Origin: Lasiosphaeria ovina
Taxonomy: Eukaryota; Ascomycota; Sordariomycetes; Sordariales; Lasiosphaeriaceae
Reading direction: 5' to 3'
DNA: 64,000 bases
NCBI GenBank assembly: GCA_033439765.1
Contig: JAULSN010000001.1
Span: 2,790,001 to 2,854,000, forward strand
Shown here: piece after piece, positions 52,800-63,822 of the stretch
Numbering within the stretch: position 1 is the stretch's first letter
Layout: each line of letters begins with the position of its first letter
Notes under the pieces: model-generated
What the model saw: only the letters and a program-made list of their open reading frames with translations
Databases searched by the model: none
Told to the model about the DNA's origin: nothing
Program-made: the position numbers and the translations under genes

Positions 52800-54500
52800 A
52801 TGGACGACGTACCGTCCGAGATCTCGGTCCTCACGCTCAACTGCTGGGGCCTCAAGTACATCTCCAAGCTGCGCCGAGAGCGGCTGGCCGAGATCGGCCG
52901 CCAGATCGCCGTGGCCGAGCCCGAGCCGCACATCGTCGCACTACAGGAACTGTGGACGCAGGAGGACTACCGCTCCGTCCGCCGCCAGACGCGCCACAAG
53001 CTGCCCTATGCCAAGTTCTACTTCAGCGGCCCCTTTGGCGGCGGCCTAGCCATCCTGTCGCGCTGGCCCATCGAAGAGAGCACCATGTTCCGCTACCCCC
53101 TCAACGGCCGGCCCACCGCCTTCTTCCGCGGCGACTGGTTCGTCGGCAAGGGCGTTGCCCATGCCCGCATCCGCTACGGCCCCGCCCCCAAGCACGTCGT
53201 CGACGTCTTCAACACCCACACCCACGCCCCCTACGAGCACGGCCCCAACGATTCGTACCTGGCCCACCGCCTCGCCCAGGCCTGGGAGATGTCCAAGCTG
53301 CTTCGTGCCGCTTCCGAGCGCGGCAGTCTGGTACTTGCCCTCGGCGACTTCAACATGGTGCCGCTCTCGCTCGAGCACCGCCTGATCACCGCCCACGCCC
53401 CCGTCCGCGACACGTGGCGCATCCTGCACCCGGACTCGTCTGTCGGGCCCGCCGACCACCCGCCGGAGCGGGCCCGCCGCCGCCCCATCCCCACAGCCGA
53501 GTTCAACATCCGCGAGAACGGCGCCGCCTCGGACGGCCCCTACAACACGTGGCGCTGGCCCAAGGCGCAGCAAAAGCGTCTGGGCGTCGGGAAGCCCGAC
53601 CTCCCTGTGTCCCCCGACACCATCGACAGCCGCGGCAAGCGGCTCGACTACGTCTTTGCCGGGTGCGGCGACGTGGCCGCGCTCGGCGGCGGCTGGGTGG
53701 TGAGCCGCGTGAGCGTCGGCATGATGGTGCGCCACCCCGAGCTCGGCTGCTCGCTCAGCGACCACTTTGCCGTCGAGGCGACGCTAGTCTTTCACCCCCT
53801 GGACTCTGCCAACGCCCCGCAACCGCACCACTACAGCCACGCGGCAGACAACTCGGCAACGACGGGCCTCACAGCAACAACAACAAACACGACGGCAACG
53901 GCAACGGCCAACACCCCATCTACTCCCAACCCCCGACAGCAGCTCCTACACCAAGAAAAGCAGCAACACCCAGACGACGGGTCCACGATCCTCGACGACA
54001 AGCAAGACGACGCGTTGCACAACGGGACGTACTTGCAGTCGCCGCGGACGAGCTCGGTGCGGGGCCCGCACAGCTTCGACAGCCAGCTGCTGGCGGCGGT
54101 GCGGTCGCCGGTCGAGCCGCTACCAGCATCAGCATACGACGAGGTACTGGCGGCGACGCGGCGGTACGCGGCGCGCGAGCGGGCGCAGAAGCGGTGGCGC
54201 GGCGCGCACTTCTGGGCGGCGCTGGCGGCGGCCGTCGGCGCGTGGGTCGCCGTGTGGTTCAGCCCGCACAACTGGGTGTCGTTCCTGCTGATGCTGCTCC
54301 TCGGCAGCCTCGGTCTTGTCGCTGGTACTGTTGATGGCCTCTTGGCCCTGCTCTTCTTCAAGAGCGAGCTGCGTGCCCTCCGCGAGTTCGAGTGGGAGAT
54401 TGTCAACGCCAAGGCCGCGCTGGCTGCCGCCGGCGGGGGCCCGCCCGTGCCCGTGTCTGACGATGATGGCGAGGACGACGAAGGCAACAGGGGGTGGTGA
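52800..54500 (+). CDS. ISC1: Inositol phosphosphingolipid phospholipase C (neutral sphingomyelinase)
   Basis: Single exon, 566 aa. Exonuclease/endonuclease/phosphatase fold with LTLNCWGLK at the start, the Mg-binding Glu 50 in VALQELW, GDFNM with Asp 183 and Asn 185, and the catalytic SDHFAVEA with His 322. A disordered Thr/Gln-rich linker follows (about 345-395). Two transmembrane helices lie near 470-490 and 493-525, then a charged C-terminus. In yeast, Isc1 hydrolyses inositol phosphosphingolipids to ceramide at the ER and mitochondria, with the C-terminal helices needed for membrane binding and phospholipid activation. The layout and length are normal for the fungal enzyme and the active site is intact. 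Confidence 0.93.
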   Translation: MDDVPSEISVLTLNCWGLKYISKLRRERLAEIGRQIAVAEPEPHIVALQELWTQEDYRSVRRQTRHKLPYAKFYFSGPFGGGLAILSRWPIEESTMFRYPLNGRPTAFFRGDWFVGKGVAHARIRYGPAPKHVVDVFNTHTHAPYEHGPNDSYLAHRLAQAWEMSKLLRAASERGSLVLALGDFNMVPLSLEHRLITAHAPVRDTWRILHPDSSVGPADHPPERARRRPIPTAEFNIRENGAASDGPYNTWRWPKAQQKRLGVGKPDLPVSPDTIDSRGKRLDYVFAGCGDVAALGGGWVVSRVSVGMMVRHPELGCSLSDHFAVEATLVFHPLDSANAPQPHHYSHAADNSATTGLTATTTNTTATATANTPSTPNPRQQLLHQEKQQHPDDGSTILDDKQDDALHNGTYLQSPRTSSVRGPHSFDSQLLAAVRSPVEPLPASAYDEVLAATRRYAARERAQKRWRGAHFWAALAAAVGAWVAVWFSPHNWVSFLLMLLLGSLGLVAGTVDGLLALLFFKSELRALREFEWEIVNAKAALAAAGGGPPVPVSDDDGEDDEGNRGW

Positions 54501-55434: not shown

Positions 55435-55932
55435 CTAGAATTCATAATGAAGTATATATTTACATGTTCTCTCGGGCCCTTTTGGTAGCACGCTGTGATT
55501 ATAGAAAATATAGAAGGAAAAAAGAGAGGAGAAGAGTATGGAAGTGAATATGGAAACGAATATGCTATTGTTTACGGCTTTTGGTAATAACTTTACCACT
55601 ACTTCCTCCCCGTTCCAGCATAGCAGTAGCCGTTTATCCCCATCCATCGCTTCAGTAACGGCGCCCATCTTTAATAGTAGCTTTACCACCACTTCCTTCC
55701 CGCTATGTTGCCAGTCACCTAAAGAAACATGTCCAAGACCGACCGTTATAAGACCACCATCTAAAGCGTACTAATATATATGTTCCTCAAAACCTTTCTA
55801 TAGCAAAGCCTTATATAAGGGTTTAATATACAGGCTAAGGACCTCTAGCGATAACGTTACTTGATTTATAAGCGCCTTAATTGCTGCCTATCGGACGTCC
55901 CTATCCGTATCCTCAAGCCGTACTATGATGCC
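55435..55932 (-). pseudogene. Decayed 3' continuation of the NLR-like gene, with ankyrin-like relics
   Basis: Beyond the TAA at 55933-55935 the minus-strand frame reads a ninth HEAT-type unit (GIIVRLEDTDRDVR, with CAA and CAG turned to stops), then SLEVLSLYIKPLYKALL. Further on, near 55560-55690, come two ankyrin-like units (VVVKLLLKMGAVTEAMDG and EEVVVKLLPKAV). The sequence is AT-rich, with stops that fit C-to-T decay. It suggests that the ancestral gene was longer, or that an ankyrin-repeat gene lay next to it. Confidence 0.55.
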
Positions 55933-58730
55933 TTATAGCATCCCCTCGGTGAGGTCGGCCCGGCCTTGAAGCGCCTCTATAGCTACCTGTCGGACGAACC
56001 TATCCTTATCCTTAAGCCGTGCTACGATGCCTTGTAGCATCCCCTCGGTGAGGTCGGCCCGGCCCTGAAGCGCCTGGATAGCTGCCTGTCGGACGAACCC
56101 ATACTCATCCTTAAGTCGTGCTGCGATACCTTGTAACATCCCCTCGGTAAGGTCGGCCCGGTCTTGAAGCGCCTCGATAGCTGCCCGTCGGACGAACCCC
56201 TCCTTATCCTTAAGCCGTGCTGCGACGCCTTGTAATATCCGCTCGGTGAGGTCGGCCCGGCCTTGAAGCGCCTGGATAGCTGCCAGTCGGACGAACCCAT
56301 CCTCATCCTCAAGCCGTGCTACTATGCCTTGTAGCATCCCCTCGGTAAGGTCAGCCCGGCCTTGAAGCGCCTCGATAGCTGCCTGTCGGACGCGCCCCTC
56401 CTTATCCTCAAGTCGTGCTACGATGCCTTGTAGCATCCCCTCGGTGAGGTCGGCCCGGACTTGAAGCGCCTCGATAGCTTCCCGTCGGACGTACCAATCA
56501 TCATCCTCAAGCCGTGCTACGATACCTTGTAGTATCTCCTCGGTAAGGTCGGCCCGGCCTCGAAGCGCCTCGATAGCTGCCTGTCGGACGAACCCATACT
56601 CATCCTCAATCCGTGCTGCGATGCCTTGTAGCATCCCCTCGGTGAGGTCGGCCTGGCCTCGAAGCGCCTCGATAGCTTCCCGTCGGACGTCGCTATCCTT
56701 ATCCTCAAGCCGTGCTGCGATGCCTTTCTCAGCCTCCTCCCACCGGCCCTGGTTCCCGTATGTCGACGCTAAGTAGGCCATACTAGTCAGTGTATCAGGG
56801 TGCTCATCTCCCAATACCTTATTCATTTCCATATCGACTATAGGGTGCGAGGTGTCTCCTTCTCCACTGTATGGCTCCCAGGGAACTGCGAGCGTTGTTG
56901 TCATCATTAATGAGCTAGGCACACAGTCGAGGAGTCCCAAGTTACTGGGCAAAGCAACTCACCATCGGGGTTTGCATCCTGAAACACCAAGTCTGCCGAT
57001 CCCTCTCTCTCGGCAGCATGGCGGCTGTCTTGCGAGTTGGAGGACCATGAGCGGTCAGCGCTGTCCGGACCCGAGGCGACGTCGAAAAAGTCGGCGCCGT
57101 CCAAGAAGTCGTCTCGCCCCAACCCCAAGTATTCTCGCTCGCCCTCCTCAGGGATTGGCCAAGGGAGCGACCGGAGTGCAAACGAGTGGACATGCTCAGC
57201 GGCGTGGTCTAGGATACCATCGAGGTCGGCCTCTTCATCGGCCGGCGGCGGCGGGCACAGCGGGCAGGAGACCAGGGACATCGGGGCTGTGTAGGCGGAC
57301 ATGGACGCGAAGATGGGGATTTGGTCTTCGGGGATGACTTCCTCGTGCTGAATTCGAAGATGCGCGTCAAAGTTGCTCTCGAGGTCGAAGCGGGTCGGCT
57401 CGAGACAGGCGGCGCATAGCCAGTACTTTGCCGTTTCGTGCTCTTCTTGCATGTGCCGTGTCCATTCTTTCCGTGTAAGATATAGCTGCTGCGGTTTTGG
57501 ACAGTCGTCCAAAATGCAAGTGTAGGGGTGAATGTCTTCGCTCAGATGCTTTCTGATGCCAGGAATTCAATCGTGTCAGCAGAGTACAGAGTAGCCATAC
57601 TTTGTCGCGACGTTCCAAACTTACCTCCACCGGGAACGTTTTGTAAATGCAATAGGAAGTGTCTGAGAGCAGCATGGGCACCGGAAGAACTTGGCCCCCT
57701 CGCGGGTCCTTGGGGGTTTCGGGTACACAACCTTGGAACTTGTCGAGGACGGGGCGGTCATGGATGGCTGGCTGCCTTGTGGTATCTGAATTGGGCCCTG
57801 GATGGCTGTCGGCACGGTGCTTGTGATGTTTGAAGGCGTTGCCATTGCTGGAGGGCCAGGCTCGGATCCACCGCCCTCGTTTCTCGAGACTGTAGCAGGC
57901 ATCATCGATGCTTGGGGCTGTCCTGGCGGCGCCCGTGCTGATCTCTCCTGCCTTGGCTGTGGCCCTAGAACCGGCTCGCGCTCGGCTGCCTGCTTCGTCC
58001 AACGCCGGCGGGCATAGAGATAGCGGTGCCGCCTGAGCAAATTGGCCGATATCAGCCGCTGTGCCACCGCTGTAATTTCTGGAGAAAGCACGAAGTCAAT
58101 GCTGCCCCCAGCTTTTTGACCCACGTCCAAGGACGTAAGCTGAATGACGAATTCCAAGTGTCGCTTAAGCTCCACATGTCGCTCAGGGATGAACGAGCCG
58201 TCGGCCCTGTCGAGACGAGCCCGCATGCCAGCTCGGCGGATGGCAACTGAGATCCTAACCAACTGGGCCATGATGTCTTCGACATCCCCAAAGGCTTCTT
58301 GGAGATTTGTCTCGCCATCTTGGTCTGCGGCCATCTGGGATGCTGATGACAGTTGAGGCACTTCGTGTTAGTGTTTTTTTCTCTTTCTCTTTCTTGCATC
58401 TAGTCGTTCTCGGGGGTTGAAGTCGTAATCTACGGTATATAAAGAGCGGGGCTCACCTAAGTCTTGGCAGCGTGCAAGGAGGCCCTCGAGAAGACCGAGG
58501 AGGTTGAGGACGACCTCGCGTACTGTCTGTTTCTCGGCCAGCCTCTGATCTAAGGACGCGCGTTGCTTGGCTAGGGCGCCCGAGTCGGAGGCCCAAAGAT
58601 TGAAGTCAGCGAGCCGCTTTCGGGGCCATTCGTCACCCATCAGAGCCGGGATGTCGATGCATTCCCTGAGCCGCCGGCGACATGCTGACGTCGCTTCATA
58701 TATCGATCTGTGTTCCCAGGGCTTGTCCAT
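55933..58730 (-). CDS. NLR-like protein: AcuF-type C2H2 region, one TPR-like unit, eight HEAT-type repeats
   Basis: Exons complement(55933-56885, 56963-57552, 57625-58342, 58457-58730); all four join in frame to 844 aa. Introns: GTGAGC..ATCAG, GTAAGT..ATCAG and GTGAGT..CGCAG. Residues 1-200 are helical with the family start IYEATSACRRRL and LADFNLWASDSGA. Residues 310-470 form the AcuF-like C2H2 region: FRCPCCSQTLP, TKRSRWRKHLSED, YTCILDDCPKP, ..RHMQEEH, then CAACLEPTRF, and LVSCPLCPP with a late H..H. Residues 548-581 match a kinesin-light-chain-type TPR (LGDEHPDTLTSMAYLASTY). Residues 582-844 are eight 33-residue repeats. This N-terminal region is common in fungal NLR/STAND proteins, but no NACHT or NB-ARC Walker motif is present. 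A sensor or adaptor role is inferred. The C-terminal end may be truncated. Confidence 0.75.
55936..56724 (-). repeat. Eight tandem 99-bp units encoding HEAT-type repeats
   Basis: Consensus of each unit: G-I-x-A-R-L-x-D then a variable tetrad at positions 9-12, V-R-x-x-A-I-x-A-L, then x-x-R-A-D-L-T-E-x-x-L-Q. Variation is concentrated at positions 9-12 and 15-16. DNA identity between units is very high. A ninth, stop-containing unit follows after 55935. Confidence 0.9.
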
Positions 58731-58953
58731 GACTCTTCCCCGGATTGTATGTACATGGGAGCAAACACCGTTGATGTTAAAACGTTGATGTTAAAACTTT
58801 GATGTTAAAATCGCAACGTTAGACTCTGCGGTGCTATGTGGTCTGTGCTTTCATCACCCCCCCCCCCCCCCCCCCCACGTTCTCGCCCGCCAAGAGCCGA
58901 AACCTCCGATGACCGTCAGGCATCCGCCACAACCTTGCACTTGATCCTGGCTG
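58731..58953. promoter_or_regulatory. 223-bp divergent promoter between NLR-like gene and subtilase
   Basis: Both start codons face outward from this short stretch. It contains three direct 14-bp units of the type CGTTGATGTTAAAA (58769-58810) and a 20-nt C homopolymer (58857-58876). The compact shared promoter suggests co-expression. The 14-bp units are candidate binding sites; no factor can be named. Confidence 0.65.
58769..58810. repeat. Three tandem 14-bp units in the divergent promoter
   Basis: Units CGTTGATGTTAAAA at 58769-58782 and 58783-58796, and CTTTGATGTTAAAA at 58797-58810. Confidence 0.9.
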
Positions 58954-61791
58954 ATGACCCGCAATTCCACGGCTCTACGAAAAACAGCAAGCAACGGGGA
59001 TGACTCGAATGCACTAAACAGAGCGGTCTCTGGTATTCACACCCGGAAATTATGCCATGCTGCCGCCCTCGTTGATCCAGCGTATCCAGGCACGCTTCAT
59101 GTTCGCCCTGGCTCCGCTATGGACCGCTTTTGCCTGGTTCGGCTCGCCCAACAGACATTCCCCTGGCTTTCGGTCCAGGTCACCAGAGTCGCCAGCCAAA
59201 AGGTAGACCCCAAGCTAGGCAGGTTGGGAGGGCTTCTTTGCATCTTTGCCGAAACGATCCTGCACCTTTCCGACTCGCAGAAGCGCCGTCTGGAGCGGGA
59301 TGGCCTCATCCAACACCTCCTGGCTAGACTTGAGGCGGTACTCTCGGTCTCGGCACCTGTCGCCAAGATGCATGTGTGGAACCGCCGACCGAACCCGCCC
59401 TCTCCAGCACATCTAGCCTTTCCCCTGCTGGCAGATACCGCGGCAGCATTAGAAGACGCGAATGAGGGCGGACTGAAAGGCGGACAAGCCCTCGCATCCA
59501 TCGAGTCCGTCATACGAAATGCCTTGCTCATGGGCAAAGCCGACTACCAGGGCATTTTCTTGGCCTTTGTTGAAGTTTCAAAGATTGGGAAAGAGAAAGA
59601 CGAGTTTGACGAGGCACCGGACTCCGAATTACCTCCGGAAAATGACGACTTCGCTGGCTACGAGAAGTACGCGAAGGCATTACACAAGCTTTTAGCGCAA
59701 TATAGCTCGTGCCGCTGCAGCCGCCAGGATCTGAACGACCGGCACTGGGCTCGGCTCAGACTGAAGCCACTGTACCGGGCAAACACGGACAACCAGATAC
59801 CCTTCGACATGTCGTTTTCGGCTTCGCCGAACCCGCATCGCACACTTCAGTTCGAATGGCAAGATGTTCAAGTCCTCGTTCCCACCAGCAAGCCTTCCCG
59901 GAGAGTCCAGTGGGCGCAAGAGCCAGCACCTGCCGCACATGTGGGGGCCAATCAACCCAGCGAGGCGGACAATGAGGCCTACGAGCGTGTCGAAACGCTA
60001 TGCACCCTCATCTCGGGCCGGTATGGCTCGCTCTTATGTCTCAAAGCAGATCGGGACCGCCTCATGGTGCTTCGTGAAGCGAGCGACCTCGTGAGCAGGC
60101 ACAACGCTCAGCACGATGCCTCTGCCGGTCTCCATCTTGGACAGGTGCTGGAGCAGTTCAACATGCGGCACGGAATGCGGCCAGTACTCGCATATGTCCT
60201 GGCAAAGGCTGTCTGGTACTACTACGACTCCGAATGGATGAGCATGAGTATGACCGAAGACAGCGTGTATTTCATGGGCGAGATCCTCGAGGATGAAGTC
60301 ACTTACTTCTTCAAACCCTATCTTTCAGCGCAGCTGCCACCGGAGGGCGGCAATCAGATCATCGAATGCCGTCAGGTCGTTGGTATGATTCACAAGTATC
60401 CACGCGTCCTTGCCCTCGGCATCATGCTGGTCGAAATCGCAACTGGCCGGCAGTTCGAGGTGGAGGGGCATCCCGATCACTGGGACCCAAAGACTGTCAA
60501 CCAGCAGCTCCTGAGTCTCAAAAAACACCTCAACAGCGGCGAGTTCCACGAGGACTGCAGGTTTCCGCGCTACAAAGCCGCCGTAAGCAAGTGCCTGGAC
60601 CCGATGCTCTTCCGAAACGCCCCGTTCAACCACAGGAAACCCGCCGAAAATCTGGAACAGAGGCGTTCCATTCTCTACAGTGAAATTGTAGATCCGCTGC
60701 GTCAGTTGATTGAGGGGACCGGGTGGGATGCCGAACTTGACGAGATCGAACGGACCCCCCTGGTTCCGAAGCCCAGGGCAAAAACTGCACCGAAATCCCT
60801 CGCATCTCTCACAATCTCTGAGGTGACATCGCCAATGGCCCAAGAGAGCGACTCGTGGCTCGAGCAGGTAGCAGTCCTGAATCAGATGCTGAAAAGGGAA
60901 AGGAGGAAAGCGTCAGCAAGGGGTACTCCTTTTAAAATCGCCATTCTCGACACGGGATACGACGAGAACGCATCCGCATTTGACGTCCACGGTCGCTCGA
61001 GGAAGATAAAAGCATGGAAGGATTTTATCTCCCGTTCTCCCAATCCCGTCGATACTGACGGCCACGGGACACACCTCCTCACCCTCCTCCTACAGTTGGA
61101 GTGCCCGGCAAATATCTACGTCGCGCGCGTAACCGAGAGCAGCAAGACGCTCAAATCAGCCGAACGCAGTATCGCCGAGGCTATCCGAACCGCCGCCTCA
61201 GAATGGGATGTCGACTTCATCTCTCTGTCTTTCGGCTTTCCCAGGCATATTAAGGGAATCTGGGAGGCCATCGCAGACGCAGTTCACATGAAGCGGGGCG
61301 CTATCACCTTCTTCGCCGCGGCTAACAACGACGGGTTTAATAGTAGAGAGATGTTCCCAGCCAACCTGGGAGAATCGGTTATTTCGGTACGGGGGACCGA
61401 CAGGGCTGGCAGCTTCGACCCCAGATACAACCCTCCCACCAGCTCCGACGAACCTGTCTTTGGCACGCTTGGCGTCGACGTCCTATCAGATTGGCCACGA
61501 GTAGAAGATGGAAAGCACATGTCTGGCTGTTCGGTGGCAACGCCCATCGCCGTTGCAATCGCCGTCATGCTTCTCGAATACGCGGCGGCGAGACCCCATG
61601 AGTTTGAGCTTGGCGACCTGAGACTTATGCGTACCCGCCGGGGTGTCTTCGAAATGTTCAAGGGTATGTCAACGCGATACGTGCGATTTCCCATTCCAGA
61701 TGTGTATCTGACAAGAGAGAACTACAAGAGATCGGCATTCACGCCGGAGACAGGCGTTATTATGTGGCACCGTTTAACTTTTTTAAGTTGA
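58954..61791 (+). CDS. DUF7580-like plus subtilase (S8) protein, HET-Q2-type candidate
   Basis: Single exon, 945 aa. Residues about 60-330 are a helical N-terminal region. Residues about 345-620 resemble the fungal DUF7580 region (LCTLISGRYGSLLCLKAD, VLAYVLAKAVWYYYDSEWM, YFMGEILEDE, then LGIMLVEIATGR at 488-499, recalling a degenerate kinase C-lobe). Residues about 655-890 are a subtilase domain with Asp 666 (AILDTGYD), His 704 (DGHGTHLLTLL), the oxyanion Asn in AAANND (791-792) and nucleophile Ser 860 (SGCSVATP), so the triad is complete. No signal peptide is visible, so an intracellular protease is inferred. Subtilases of this architecture occur in fungal immune-type gene pairs. The neighbouring gasdermin-like gene suggests that it could be the activating protease. 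Confidence 0.9.
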   Translation: MTRNSTALRKTASNGDDSNALNRAVSGIHTRKLCHAAALVDPAYPGTLHVRPGSAMDRFCLVRLAQQTFPWLSVQVTRVASQKVDPKLGRLGGLLCIFAETILHLSDSQKRRLERDGLIQHLLARLEAVLSVSAPVAKMHVWNRRPNPPSPAHLAFPLLADTAAALEDANEGGLKGGQALASIESVIRNALLMGKADYQGIFLAFVEVSKIGKEKDEFDEAPDSELPPENDDFAGYEKYAKALHKLLAQYSSCRCSRQDLNDRHWARLRLKPLYRANTDNQIPFDMSFSASPNPHRTLQFEWQDVQVLVPTSKPSRRVQWAQEPAPAAHVGANQPSEADNEAYERVETLCTLISGRYGSLLCLKADRDRLMVLREASDLVSRHNAQHDASAGLHLGQVLEQFNMRHGMRPVLAYVLAKAVWYYYDSEWMSMSMTEDSVYFMGEILEDEVTYFFKPYLSAQLPPEGGNQIIECRQVVGMIHKYPRVLALGIMLVEIATGRQFEVEGHPDHWDPKTVNQQLLSLKKHLNSGEFHEDCRFPRYKAAVSKCLDPMLFRNAPFNHRKPAENLEQRRSILYSEIVDPLRQLIEGTGWDAELDEIERTPLVPKPRAKTAPKSLASLTISEVTSPMAQESDSWLEQVAVLNQMLKRERRKASARGTPFKIAILDTGYDENASAFDVHGRSRKIKAWKDFISRSPNPVDTDGHGTHLLTLLLQLECPANIYVARVTESSKTLKSAERSIAEAIRTAASEWDVDFISLSFGFPRHIKGIWEAIADAVHMKRGAITFFAAANNDGFNSREMFPANLGESVISVRGTDRAGSFDPRYNPPTSSDEPVFGTLGVDVLSDWPRVEDGKHMSGCSVATPIAVAIAVMLLEYAAARPHEFELGDLRLMRTRRGVFEMFKGMSTRYVRFPIPDVYLTRENYKRSAFTPETGVIMWHRLTFLS

Positions 61792-62051
61792 GCGAGGATA
61801 TAAGACTGGCGAAGATGAAGGCAGCACTTGGAAGACATCCGGAGAGGTGGTAGGACGATACGACAGCCCAAACATGTTGGAAATAAGTGACGAATACACA
61901 TTTATACACCCTTTCACACTACCCTAGAGTGCAGGACATACAATTGTACTGGCGAGCGAAAAACAGCCCGGCGTATCATCTTTTCAAGCAGCTTGTTTCG
62001 ACAAGCGGTTCAAAGCTATAAATTATGGAGATCAAATTCGGTGCCCTCTCT
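61792..62051. other. Convergent 3' region subtilase / gasdermin-like gene
   Basis: 260 bp between convergent stops; no gene. The two transcripts may overlap here. Confidence 0.5.
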
Positions 62052-62936
62052 CTACTGCACTGCATCGCCCACACCAAGAATCATCACCTCTCCCTCCTCA
62101 CCTTCCAGGACAACCTGCCTAGCATCCGTCTCCTCCTCGTCGTCATCTCCAGAAACAACATCCCCAACTCCCACATCCATGACCTCAACCAGGTCCGCCC
62201 CGATCTCCCCACTCTCCCCACCATCAGCATCATCGTCGCGAAGCATCCTCTCCCTATCCTTGTCTCTATACTCGTCCAACTCCAACCCCCTCCCGTGTTT
62301 CCTGATGACGACCACCCGGTACGCAATCACCACCTCGCCCTCAACCGTGTACGCCTCCCCCTCGCTCCTCTCCCGGACCCCCCCCACCTCGGCGCCTATT
62401 GACAGCCCAGGCGCGCCCACCGCCACAAGCGGCACGTCTGCGCCCACGGTGCCGGCCTTTCTCGCGCCGTTCCCGCTCGACACGGTGAAGCCCTCGGCGA
62501 TCTTGACGCCCGTGATCATGAAGAGCTTCCCACCGCCCATGGCGCGGCGGCCGAAGAGGATGCGCTCCGCCCGCGGGTTCGCGGCGGCGAGGGCGCGGAT
62601 CGCCTCGTCGGGGGGGTCCGACTCGAAGAAGCGCGTCGTCACCGTCGCGGCCGAGTAGGCCGTGGTTCCGGACAGGGAAAACTCCGAGGCGGCCTTGACG
62701 CCGGCCAGCCCGAGGATCTGGGCCGAGAGGGACGCCGAGGCGCCGCGGGTCGTGGTGCGGGAGATGGAGAGGTTGGTCTGCGTGGTTGCGGCGGTCGGGG
62801 GGTGGGACTCAGTGGGGAGAATGGCGAGGGGCCGGTGCGGGGCGAATGGGTTCGAGAGGAGGTTGCCTAGGCGGATGGACGAGTTGGGCGGGTATTCGAA
62901 GGTGGGAGGGAGGATGTAGACCTTTGGCGGGGGCAT
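62052..62936 (-). CDS. Fungal gasdermin-like (RCD-1/HET-Q1 type) protein
   Basis: Single exon, 294 aa, intronless. Pattern of the fungal gasdermin family as I know it: N-terminal VYILPPTFEYPP and RLGNLLSNPFAPHRPL, a Ser/Thr-rich segment with SASLSAQILG, FFESDPP, KLFMITGVKIAEGFTV at 137-152, a Gly-rich segment, then VVIAYRVVVI at 202-211. After residue 215 the chain changes to a very acidic, low-complexity tail (215-294; a DDDEEE run) ending GVGDAVQ. In HET-Q1 a short C-terminal piece is removed by the linked subtilase HET-Q2 to free the membrane-active form; the tail here is a candidate inhibitory piece but longer. No signal peptide. Alternative: an unrelated conserved fungal protein with a similar beta-rich layout. 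The identification is by pattern and genetic context, not by alignment. Confidence 0.72.
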   Translation of the reverse strand: MPPPKVYILPPTFEYPPNSSIRLGNLLSNPFAPHRPLAILPTESHPPTAATTQTNLSISRTTTRGASASLSAQILGLAGVKAASEFSLSGTTAYSAATVTTRFFESDPPDEAIRALAAANPRAERILFGRRAMGGGKLFMITGVKIAEGFTVSSGNGARKAGTVGADVPLVAVGAPGLSIGAEVGGVRERSEGEAYTVEGEVVIAYRVVVIRKHGRGLELDEYRDKDRERMLRDDDADGGESGEIGADLVEVMDVGVGDVVSGDDDEEETDARQVVLEGEEGEVMILGVGDAVQ

Positions 62937-63180
62937 GGTGGGGTGGGACCATGTATTATGGAGTACTGAAGGCCTTCCCGGGTGGGACCCAGGCTGAGAT
63001 AACTGTAGATTCAGTATGGACAGGCTCGTTTTAACAGCTAAGAGCTTCAGTACTCTTCAAAGGAGATGTACCCTCGCTTCAAAGGCTCCAGCCCACTTCA
63101 GGAAAGAGGGGCCAGGATGCGCTAATGCAGGACTGCCTGAGGCAAGGAGAAAGCTGATGGGACGTTGGGTGGAGAGGTCG
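62937..63180. promoter_or_regulatory. Upstream region of the gasdermin-like gene
   Basis: About 245 bp between the gasdermin-like start and transposase-like sequence. A GGTGGGACC direct repeat occurs at 62941-62950 and 62982-62990. The promoter of the minus-strand gene must lie here, so it may include transposon-derived sequence. Confidence 0.4.
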
Positions 63181-63822
63181 AGCACCTCGTTGCAGCTCAC
63201 CGTAAGTTACTATGGTAGTCGTCAAACGTATTATCTTGAGAGCCACCATATTCCATTCTTCAAGGCTGATCTATTCCGCGAATCTGGTATTAGCAAGATT
63301 CGCGGCTGGCAAATCCTGAAAGATGGATACGATCGGCGGCATCCTCAGGTGGAAACTCGGGGGCGGAAGCCCATCGTCTCGGCCGAAGGTTTACGCAAAA
63401 TGGAAGCAATCATCTGGCAGTATGGCTTCCAGGCGCGCAGCTTAACCCGGCAGGGCCTTGCCAACCAGGCCGGTATTCAAGCATCCGCTAGAGCTATTGA
63501 GCGCGCGATGGGCACGCTTCAATGTCGGAAATGTATCGCCTGCCAAAAGGGCTGGAGTTCCCCTGCTCCCGCCAAACGCCGGGTTCATGATGCGCAACTT
63601 GCCCTGCAATGTCGCCCAAACCCAGAAGACTGGCACGATATCCGATGGACAGATGAATGCCATTTTTCAGTTAGTCCCGGAAGGAAAGATCCGCATTATT
63701 CGAAAGCCAGGCGAGCGCTACTGTCCAGATTGTATCCAGCACCAAGATAACTATATCGAAGTCCTTGAGGAAGAGGAACGAGGCGTACAGCCGCTTGGGA
63801 GGGTTAGGCTTTGGCCGTTGTA
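63181..63822 (+). pseudogene. Tc1/mariner-type transposase fragment, frameshifted
   Basis: Helix-turn-helix part (ADLFRESGISKIRGWQILKDG..RGRKPIVSAEGL), an HTH_Tnp-like region (SLTRQGLANQAGIQASARAIERAM), then the start of the DDE_3 domain (PNPEDWHDIRWTDECHF, first catalytic Asp). A frameshift near 63668 moves the reading to the +1 frame (FQLVPEGKIRIIRKPGERYCPDCIQ) before it stops at 63820-63822. The rest of the DDE domain is missing. Inactive remnant. Confidence 0.75.

What the first reader, a model, noticed from the sequence alone, without database searches (positions are those of the whole stretch)
55933..62936. Candidate gasdermin-type cell-death module: NLR-like gene, subtilase and gasdermin-like gene in 7 kb
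Seen: three adjacent genes, a repeat-bearing NLR-like gene and a subtilase gene sharing a 223-bp divergent promoter, and a gasdermin-like gene convergent with the subtilase. Established: in Podospora anserina the gasdermin HET-Q1 is activated by the linked subtilase HET-Q2, and rcd-1-like genes in other fungi are often clustered with protease-bearing NLR-like genes. Inference: this locus is a sensor-protease-pore module in which the nucleotide-binding step is missing and the HEAT-repeat protein may act in trans. The three-gene arrangement with an NB-less repeat protein is, as far as I know, not a described variant.
Basis: partly seen in the sequence, partly recalled or inferred. Interest (0 to 1): 0.95.

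Follow-up and report, generated by a model that had tools for sequence, protein, structure and literature searches.

The report
Fungal gasdermin module with swappable sensor
A mould carries a three-gene cell-suicide kit (a pore-forming gasdermin, a protease that probably switches it on, and a head-to-head neighbour that looks like a sensor), and the sensor's tail has been swapped between related species, in one of them for pieces of a calcium channel, much as in the paired immune receptors of plants.

Summary
Host: Lasiosphaeria ovina (Sordariales). The 294-aa protein is a fungal gasdermin: its family profile finds the HET-Q1 pore (E 7e-8) and bacterial gasdermins, and its model's best fold matches are gasdermins. 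The subtilase is an 889-aa DUF7580-S8 protein with an intact D/H/S triad. The "NLR-like" gene is a 4-exon, 844-aa protein: helical domain, C2H2 zinc fingers, TPR remnant, eight HEAT repeats; no nucleotide-binding domain was found. All three genes share a contig in six species (this one included); in Rhypophila they have consecutive locus tags.

(1) The sensor-like protein's N-terminal ~530 residues are conserved (56-87%), but its tail is replaced between orthologues: annexin, HEAT, two segments of a calcium channel, or an unknown domain. (2) In this genome 16 of 21 C2H2-cassette loci lie beside a DUF7580 gene, all 16 head-to-head; tails there include NACHT, NB-ARC, WD40, ankyrin and TPR. Only four DUF7580 loci have the protease domain and three of those a gasdermin.

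Best reading: sensor with exchangeable integrated domain, protease, pore. Function is inferred, not shown. New variant of a known kind.

The parts
62052..62936 (-). Fungal gasdermin, 294 aa; core about residues 11-207, then an acidic tail of about 60 residues without structure in the model
59119..61853 (+). DUF7580-S8 subtilase gene, 889 aa; exons 59119-61663 and 61729-61853; triad D611, H649, S805 of the corrected model
   Evidence: Pfam DUF7580 E 1.8e-25, Peptidase_S8 E 9.6e-10; model; triad
55933..58730 (-). Sensor-like gene, 844 aa, 4 exons (58730-58457, 58342-57625, 57552-56963, 56885-55933)
   Evidence: Splice model; junction peptide in orthologues
56963..58730 (-). Exons 1-3: conserved cassette, helical domain (residues about 10-211) and C2H2 zinc-finger region (about 290-475)
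   Evidence: AlphaFold2 model, mean pLDDT 79.0; invariant Cys/His columns in 35 homologues
55933..56885 (-). Exon 4: conserved junction peptide, TPR_10 remnant, eight 33-aa HEAT units (the exchangeable tail)
   Evidence: Pfam HEAT_2 E 1.1e-34, TPR_10 just below cut-off; repeat units
58731..59118 (.). 388-bp head-to-head intergenic region of sensor-like gene and subtilase
   Evidence: Gene models

Best explanation
A three-gene regulated-cell-death module. The gasdermin is held inactive by its short acidic C-terminal tail. The neighbouring DUF7580-S8 subtilase is the cognate protease that removes the tail, after which the N-domain inserts into the plasma membrane and kills the hyphal compartment. 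The head-to-head gene encodes a partner that senses through an exchangeable C-terminal domain (HEAT repeats here) and controls the subtilase through its conserved helical/C2H2 cassette. Shown here: identity of gasdermin and protease, intact triad, gene structure, conserved linkage, tail replacement between orthologues. Inferred: cleavage, pore formation, cell death, contact of cassette and DUF7580, direction of signalling.
For: Gasdermin identity. S8 domain and triad. Three genes on one contig in 6 species including this one, of 12 gasdermin rows listed; consecutive locus tags in Rhypophila. Three of the 5 own-genome gasdermin loci have the same cassette gene head-to-head with the protease. 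Cassette-DUF7580 pairing in 16 of 21 cassette loci, all head-to-head. Tail replaced at a fixed junction, in one species by two segments matching a calcium channel gene. Identities of cassette and subtilase between 6 species correlate, r 0.85. Published relatives: HET-Q2 cleaves HET-Q1 near F238 (passages).
Against: No expression, interaction or cleavage data. Gasdermin identities correlate weakly with cassette (0.57) and subtilase (0.23) over the same 6 species. Triangularia has gasdermin and cassette on different contigs; the S8 search did not list C. globosum or Cercophora samala, and the gasdermin search did not list Podospora aff. communis or C. fimeti, which have cassette and S8. The deposited L. 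ovina protein lacks the HEAT part. Two of 5 own-genome gasdermin loci showed no cassette gene in the regions read. Most DUF7580-cassette pairs have no S8 domain nearby, so the pair's basic job may not be gasdermin control.
Confidence: 0.6

Rival explanations
1. Two-gene module plus bystander: gasdermin and DUF7580-S8 protease form the usual Q2L pair with DUF7580 as the sensing part; the C2H2 gene is a separate, for instance transcriptional, gene that shares the promoter.
For: Two-gene Q2L clusters are the published rule. C2H2 fingers resemble DNA-binding fingers weakly. Two own-genome gasdermin loci showed no cassette gene where read.
Against: Linkage kept in 6 species with all three genes, and cassette-DUF7580 contigs shared also in Colletotrichum, Fusarium and Emmonsiellopsis; 16 of 16 pairs head-to-head; NLR-type tails on the cassette.
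Confidence: 0.2
2. The cassette protein is an inhibitor (antidote) that holds the protease inactive; loss or attack of the cassette protein, not sensing by an added domain, releases it.
For: Head-to-head sharing of a 388-bp region would keep both in balance; a fixed partner next to a dangerous protease fits guard-and-release.
Against: Repeated replacement of the tail is not needed for simple inhibition. It does not exclude inhibition combined with a bait tail.
Confidence: 0.1
3. In L. ovina the sensor-like gene is a decaying copy: the HEAT array was cut by a stop, perhaps by repeat-induced mutation, and the gene is no longer functional.
For: Stop at 55933 is followed by repeat-like sequence with further in-frame stops; TpA/ApT 1.06 in exon 4 and 1.36 just downstream against 0.48 in exons 1-3.
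Against: 844-aa frame open, eight full HEAT units, three consensus introns; the other two genes are open.
Confidence: 0.1

Closest known systems
HET-Q1/HET-Q2 of Podospora anserina and fungal gasdermin-Q2L two-gene clusters (Clave et al. 2022, not read; known here from passages of PMC10197012, PMC12881547, PMC10989679)
   Same: Gasdermin with short tail beside a subtilisin-like S8 protease; the published share is about 60% of gasdermin genes near S8 genes, about 80% near any protease gene.
   Different: HET-Q2 is a 388-aa protease; here it is 889 aa with DUF7580. Published sensors are domains fused to the protease; here a separate head-to-head gene carries an exchangeable tail.
Plant head-to-head NLR pairs with integrated decoys (described in passages of PMC12258605)
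   Same: Head-to-head genes; one member carries exchangeable extra domains, in one case copied from a host protein.
   Different: The partner is a DUF7580 protein without NB domain found; at this locus the tail-bearing member has none either; the output is protease plus gasdermin.
Sordariales NLRs (PMC12258605, abstract and passages)
   Same: NACHT or NB-ARC NLRs with zinc-finger and kinase extra domains are listed there; two cassette genes here carry NACHT or NB-ARC.
   Different: That study found head-to-head NLR pairs rare (13 of 225 two-NLR clusters). The pairs here join a cassette gene to a DUF7580 gene, which an NLR-NLR count would miss.
RCD-1 gasdermin of Neurospora crassa
   Different: RCD-1 is activated by meeting of two allelic variants, not by cleavage (passage).

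Membership tests
fungal gasdermin (fGSDM) | gasdermin N-domain by sequence profile and fold | tested here: met
   model confidence low, so the sequence profile carries most weight
fungal gasdermin (fGSDM) | short C-terminal inhibitory tail removed by protease | tested here: inconclusive
   An acidic tail of about 60 residues exists and is conserved at its end; inhibition and cleavage not tested
fungal gasdermin (fGSDM) | membrane pore formation and cell death | not testable with these tools
   needs experiment
HET-Q2-like (Q2L) S8 protease | S8 domain with intact D/H/S triad | tested here: met
   in A4 (25 rows, one of which, P0088, has no S8 domain by Pfam) the 24 others have S 24, H 24, D 22 with 2 gaps from gene models
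HET-Q2-like (Q2L) S8 protease | gene within 10 kb of a gasdermin gene | tested here: met
   198-bp gap here; 5 of 5 own-genome gasdermins
HET-Q2-like (Q2L) S8 protease | cleaves its linked gasdermin | not testable with these tools
   needs co-expression
NLR (for the 844-aa gene) | central NACHT or NB-ARC domain | tested here: not met
   No such match in Pfam scans of all exons; paralogues at C23 and C27 have NACHT and NB-ARC
NLR (for the 844-aa gene) | C-terminal repeat domain | tested here: met
   Eight HEAT units; closest array in the genome is in a NACHT gene
NLR (for the 844-aa gene) | N-terminal signalling domain (coiled-coil or four-helix type) | tested here: inconclusive
head-to-head sensor/executor pair with integrated decoy | head-to-head genes with short shared intergenic region | tested here: met
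   388 bp here; 16 of 16 pairs head-to-head
head-to-head sensor/executor pair with integrated decoy | exchangeable domain related to a host protein | tested here: met
   Tail swap in 9 orthologues compared; Rhypophila tail matches a channel gene. For HEAT and annexin tails no host source gene was traced
head-to-head sensor/executor pair with integrated decoy | both partners are NLRs | tested here: not met
   Pfam finds DUF7580 and S8 only in the partner
head-to-head sensor/executor pair with integrated decoy | one partner senses, the other executes | not testable with these tools
   needs genetics

The most novel reading that the evidence does not exclude
Filamentous ascomycetes have a large, so far unnamed class of head-to-head immune gene pairs: a C2H2-cassette sensor with an exchangeable tail (NLR modules, or copies of host proteins such as a calcium channel or annexin acting as integrated decoys) and a DUF7580 executor. 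The gasdermin locus is the version in which the executor carries a protease and fires a pore. Fungi would then have evolved sensor/executor pairs with integrated decoys in parallel with plants, and HET-Q2-type systems may be remnants that lost the sensor.
Probability: 0.4. Interest if true: 0.93.

Novelty: new variant of a known kind. Interest (0 to 1): 0.8.

Why it matters
What activates the protease-bearing regulators of fungal gasdermins is stated as an open question (PMC12881547, passage). A conserved neighbour gene with a swapped tail gives concrete candidates for the sensing step and for what may be sensed: a calcium channel, annexin, HEAT-repeat targets. [quoted passage not shown] Tail swaps at one orthologous locus are a natural experiment for integrated-decoy evolution outside plants.

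Tried and rejected
Rejected: reading the 945-aa ORF as the subtilase (start and C-terminus contradicted by most homologues). Treating the deposited 545-aa protein as the whole gene (junction peptide). Calling DUF7580 kinase-like: the review mentions kinase-like domains fused to such proteases and a motif looked kinase-like to me, but a 5-sequence profile found no solved structure at E <= 1, so the claim is dropped. PNP_UDP_1 or patatin as executor domain of the other DUF7580 genes here: comparing the lists, no hit lies beside a DUF7580 locus; one CHAT hit lies 2.1 kb from the C23:5.26 Mb pair, on the opposite strand. Co-phylogeny by identity correlation: good for cassette and S8 (0.85), weak for the gasdermin (0.57, 0.23).

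Weak or conflicting results: one-sequence search of the gasdermin against solved structures gave E 0.055; Pfam has no gasdermin hit; gasdermin model pLDDT 50.6; Foldseek found no significant fold for the cassette. PF26082 (acuF-like C2H2) appears in the precomputed listing for P0013, P0014 and P0017 among others, but my own scan of these three did not list it. The GPHH match of the Rhypophila tail is below Pfam's cut-off; the calcium-channel assignment rests on the L. ovina channel gene, and the name Cch1 is recalled.

Counts and what was left out: the C30:0.38 Mb pair was found by reading a fetched region and is not in the 16 of 21. The census uses two cassette queries and one DUF7580 profile (2 of its 27 loci are below cut-off); 11 of 27 DUF7580 loci and 5 of 21 cassette loci are unpaired, and some unpaired cassette hits (for example C1:3.60 Mb) look like ordinary C2H2 genes. 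The tool scores only best candidates, so counts are lower bounds. Tail comparison used 9 proteins; P0016 and P0017 (models end at or before the junction), P0028 and P0042 were not compared, P0013 is the same gene. Cassette-side tails were scanned for 9 pairs besides the window, of 17 in all. Same-contig linkage rests on equal contig lengths plus organism names; for whole chromosomes this is weak.

Literature: Clave et al. 2022 and Daskalov et al. 2020 were not held and not read. Searches for this arrangement; I judged their listings by titles and abstract starts and recognised no account of it. Five papers were seen in passages only (PMC10197012, PMC12881547, PMC12258605 also outline and abstract, PMC9815663, PMC10989679).
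Full report
WHERE. The window lies at C1:2790001-2854000 of a 51.7-Mb assembly of 32 contigs. A protein identical to the window's cassette, on a contig of the same length, is named Lasiosphaeria ovina B0T24DRAFT_602981; the species is in Sordariales, Lasiosphaeriaceae.

SUBTILASE (59119-61853, +). DUF7580 and Peptidase_S8 are both above cut-off. Homologues favour a start at 59119 (6 of 10 read) and require a 65-nt intron at 61664-61728 (C-terminus shared by 9 of 10), giving 889 aa. Among 24 aligned S8 homologues including this one the serine is in 24, the histidine in 24, the aspartate in 22 with two gaps from gene models.

LINKAGE IN OTHER SPECIES. Comparing the contig lengths of all listed rows (12 gasdermin, 51 cassette, 38 S8 rows with a contig), gasdermin and cassette share 8 of 12 gasdermin contigs and all three genes share 6: L. 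ovina, Rhypophila decipiens (11.5-kb contig; consecutive tags V8F06_014485 cassette, 014486 subtilase, 014487 gasdermin), Cladorrhinum sp. PSN259, Chaetomium tenue, Chaetomium sp. MPI-CAGE-AT-0009 and Cercophora newfieldiana. Cassette and S8/DUF7580 hits share 11 contigs, including Colletotrichum melonis, Fusarium sp. AF-6 (CEP53_002994/002995) and, in another class, Emmonsiellopsis (FQN50_008193/008194). Misses: Triangularia has different contigs for gasdermin and cassette; three gasdermin rows are unnamed contigs under 7.2 kb; S8 rows are missing for C. globosum and Cercophora samala, gasdermin rows for Podospora aff. communis and C. fimeti. Relatives at this locus are 49-84% (gasdermin), 60-75% (cassette) and 56-78% (subtilase) identical to the window, against at most 32%, 38% and 44% for own-genome paralogues, so I read it as one orthologous locus.

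TAIL REPLACEMENT. In nine orthologues the cassette is 56-87% identical up to the peptide (N/T)PDVPWE, and then the tails fall into unrelated groups. Annexin: four Chaetomium and Triangularia (above cut-off in P0015, P0020, P0022, P0026; P0021 by the precomputed listing). HEAT: L. ovina. A domain without Pfam match, 33% identical over 147 residues: Cercophora newfieldiana and Podospora aff. communis. The Rhypophila tail has a single match in the L. ovina genome, inside a gene with an ion-transport domain (PF00520 E 2.6e-45). Two segments match that gene, 47% over 148 columns and 58% over 24 residues, in swapped order. I call it the calcium channel Cch1 from recall; the GPHH match of the tail (L-type calcium channel) is below cut-off. 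The swap begins about ten residues into the last exon. Fusion by faulty gene models is possible for single cases; the junction is shared by nine models, and in L. ovina I read it from the DNA.

THE PAIR IS A GENOME-WIDE THEME. Two cassette searches give 21 loci; the DUF7580 profile gives 27. 16 of 21 cassettes lie within 6 kb of a DUF7580 hit, all 16 head-to-head. Shifting positions by up to 100 kb with random strands gives a mean of 0.33, and 0 of 20000 trials reach 16. The pairs are probably related by descent, so this shows retention, not 16 inventions. Tails scanned in 9 pairs besides the window: NB-ARC, NACHT, WD40, ankyrin, TPR, Clr5, kinase (one kinase family above and one below cut-off), and two without informative hit, one of them PHD-like by eye. 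Four DUF7580 loci have an S8 domain within 2 kb; three of these have a gasdermin within 10 kb. The Emmonsiellopsis DUF7580 partner has a sub-threshold PNP_UDP_1 match and no S8, a hint that the executor end may be exchangeable too.

OWN-GENOME REPLICATES. All five gasdermin genes found have an S8 domain within 10 kb. Three (window, C23:0.56 Mb, C3:0.65 Mb) also have the cassette gene head-to-head with the protease, with HEAT, NACHT and kinase tails. In the other two the protease side looks different: upstream frames encode a pyridoxal-dependent decarboxylase at C1:7.2 Mb, and a long frame without Pfam match at C12.

MECHANISM. Established for relatives: HET-Q2 cleaves HET-Q1 near F238, removing about 5 kDa (passages). 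Inferred: the subtilase does the same to the linked gasdermin; the cassette protein controls the subtilase through DUF7580; the tail is the sensing or bait surface. A tail swapped at a fixed junction, once for segments of a host channel, is what an integrated decoy would look like. Inhibition instead of sensing, or mere co-location, are the rivals.

NOVELTY. The reviews, seen in passages, describe two- and three-gene clusters and sensors fused to the protease, and the Sordariales NLR survey calls head-to-head NLR pairs rare. In nine searches (listed under Tried and rejected) I recognised no account of a conserved head-to-head cassette gene with exchangeable tails; the key primary paper was not available. 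I file it as a new variant of the fungal gasdermin-protease module.

Noticed in passing
L016:4689-7014 (C1:7.2 Mb): Beside another gasdermin gene, an S8 subtilase frame is preceded on the same strand by frames for a pyridoxal-dependent decarboxylase domain (PF00282): a possible enzyme-protease fusion; the joining exons were not modelled.
   Followed up: partly
window 63016-63750: Transposase-like open frame (label by eye; no Pfam match over cut-off) next to the gasdermin gene.
   Followed up: no
window 55700-56885: The HEAT array ends at a stop and repeat-like sequence with further stops follows; TpA/ApT is raised there, as repeat-induced mutation would give.
   Followed up: partly
C23:563-586 kb (L017, L024, L054): Two cassette-DUF7580 head-to-head pairs lie within about 23 kb of each other, one with gasdermin and S8, one with a Clr5 tail.
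   Followed up: no
C23:5.258-5.265 Mb: A CHAT protease hit lies 2.1 kb from the DUF7580 gene of a head-to-head pair with a TPR tail, on the opposite strand.
   Followed up: no
C3:639-650 kb (L019, L020): Between the cassette-kinase gene and the gasdermin lies a gene that looks like a HET-domain gene (by eye); a Colletotrichum melonis relative has kinase and HET domains in one protein.
   Followed up: no
L052:3-1130 (C23:2.389 Mb): Cassette gene with a WD40 array whose units are nearly identical to each other by eye.
   Followed up: no
window 58772-58876: The 388-bp head-to-head region holds three copies of TGATGTTAAAA spaced 14 bp and a run of 20 C.
   Followed up: no
window 52800-54500: Neighbouring gene with an endonuclease/exonuclease/phosphatase domain (PF03372), probably a sphingolipid phospholipase (recalled); not part of the module.
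   Followed up: no
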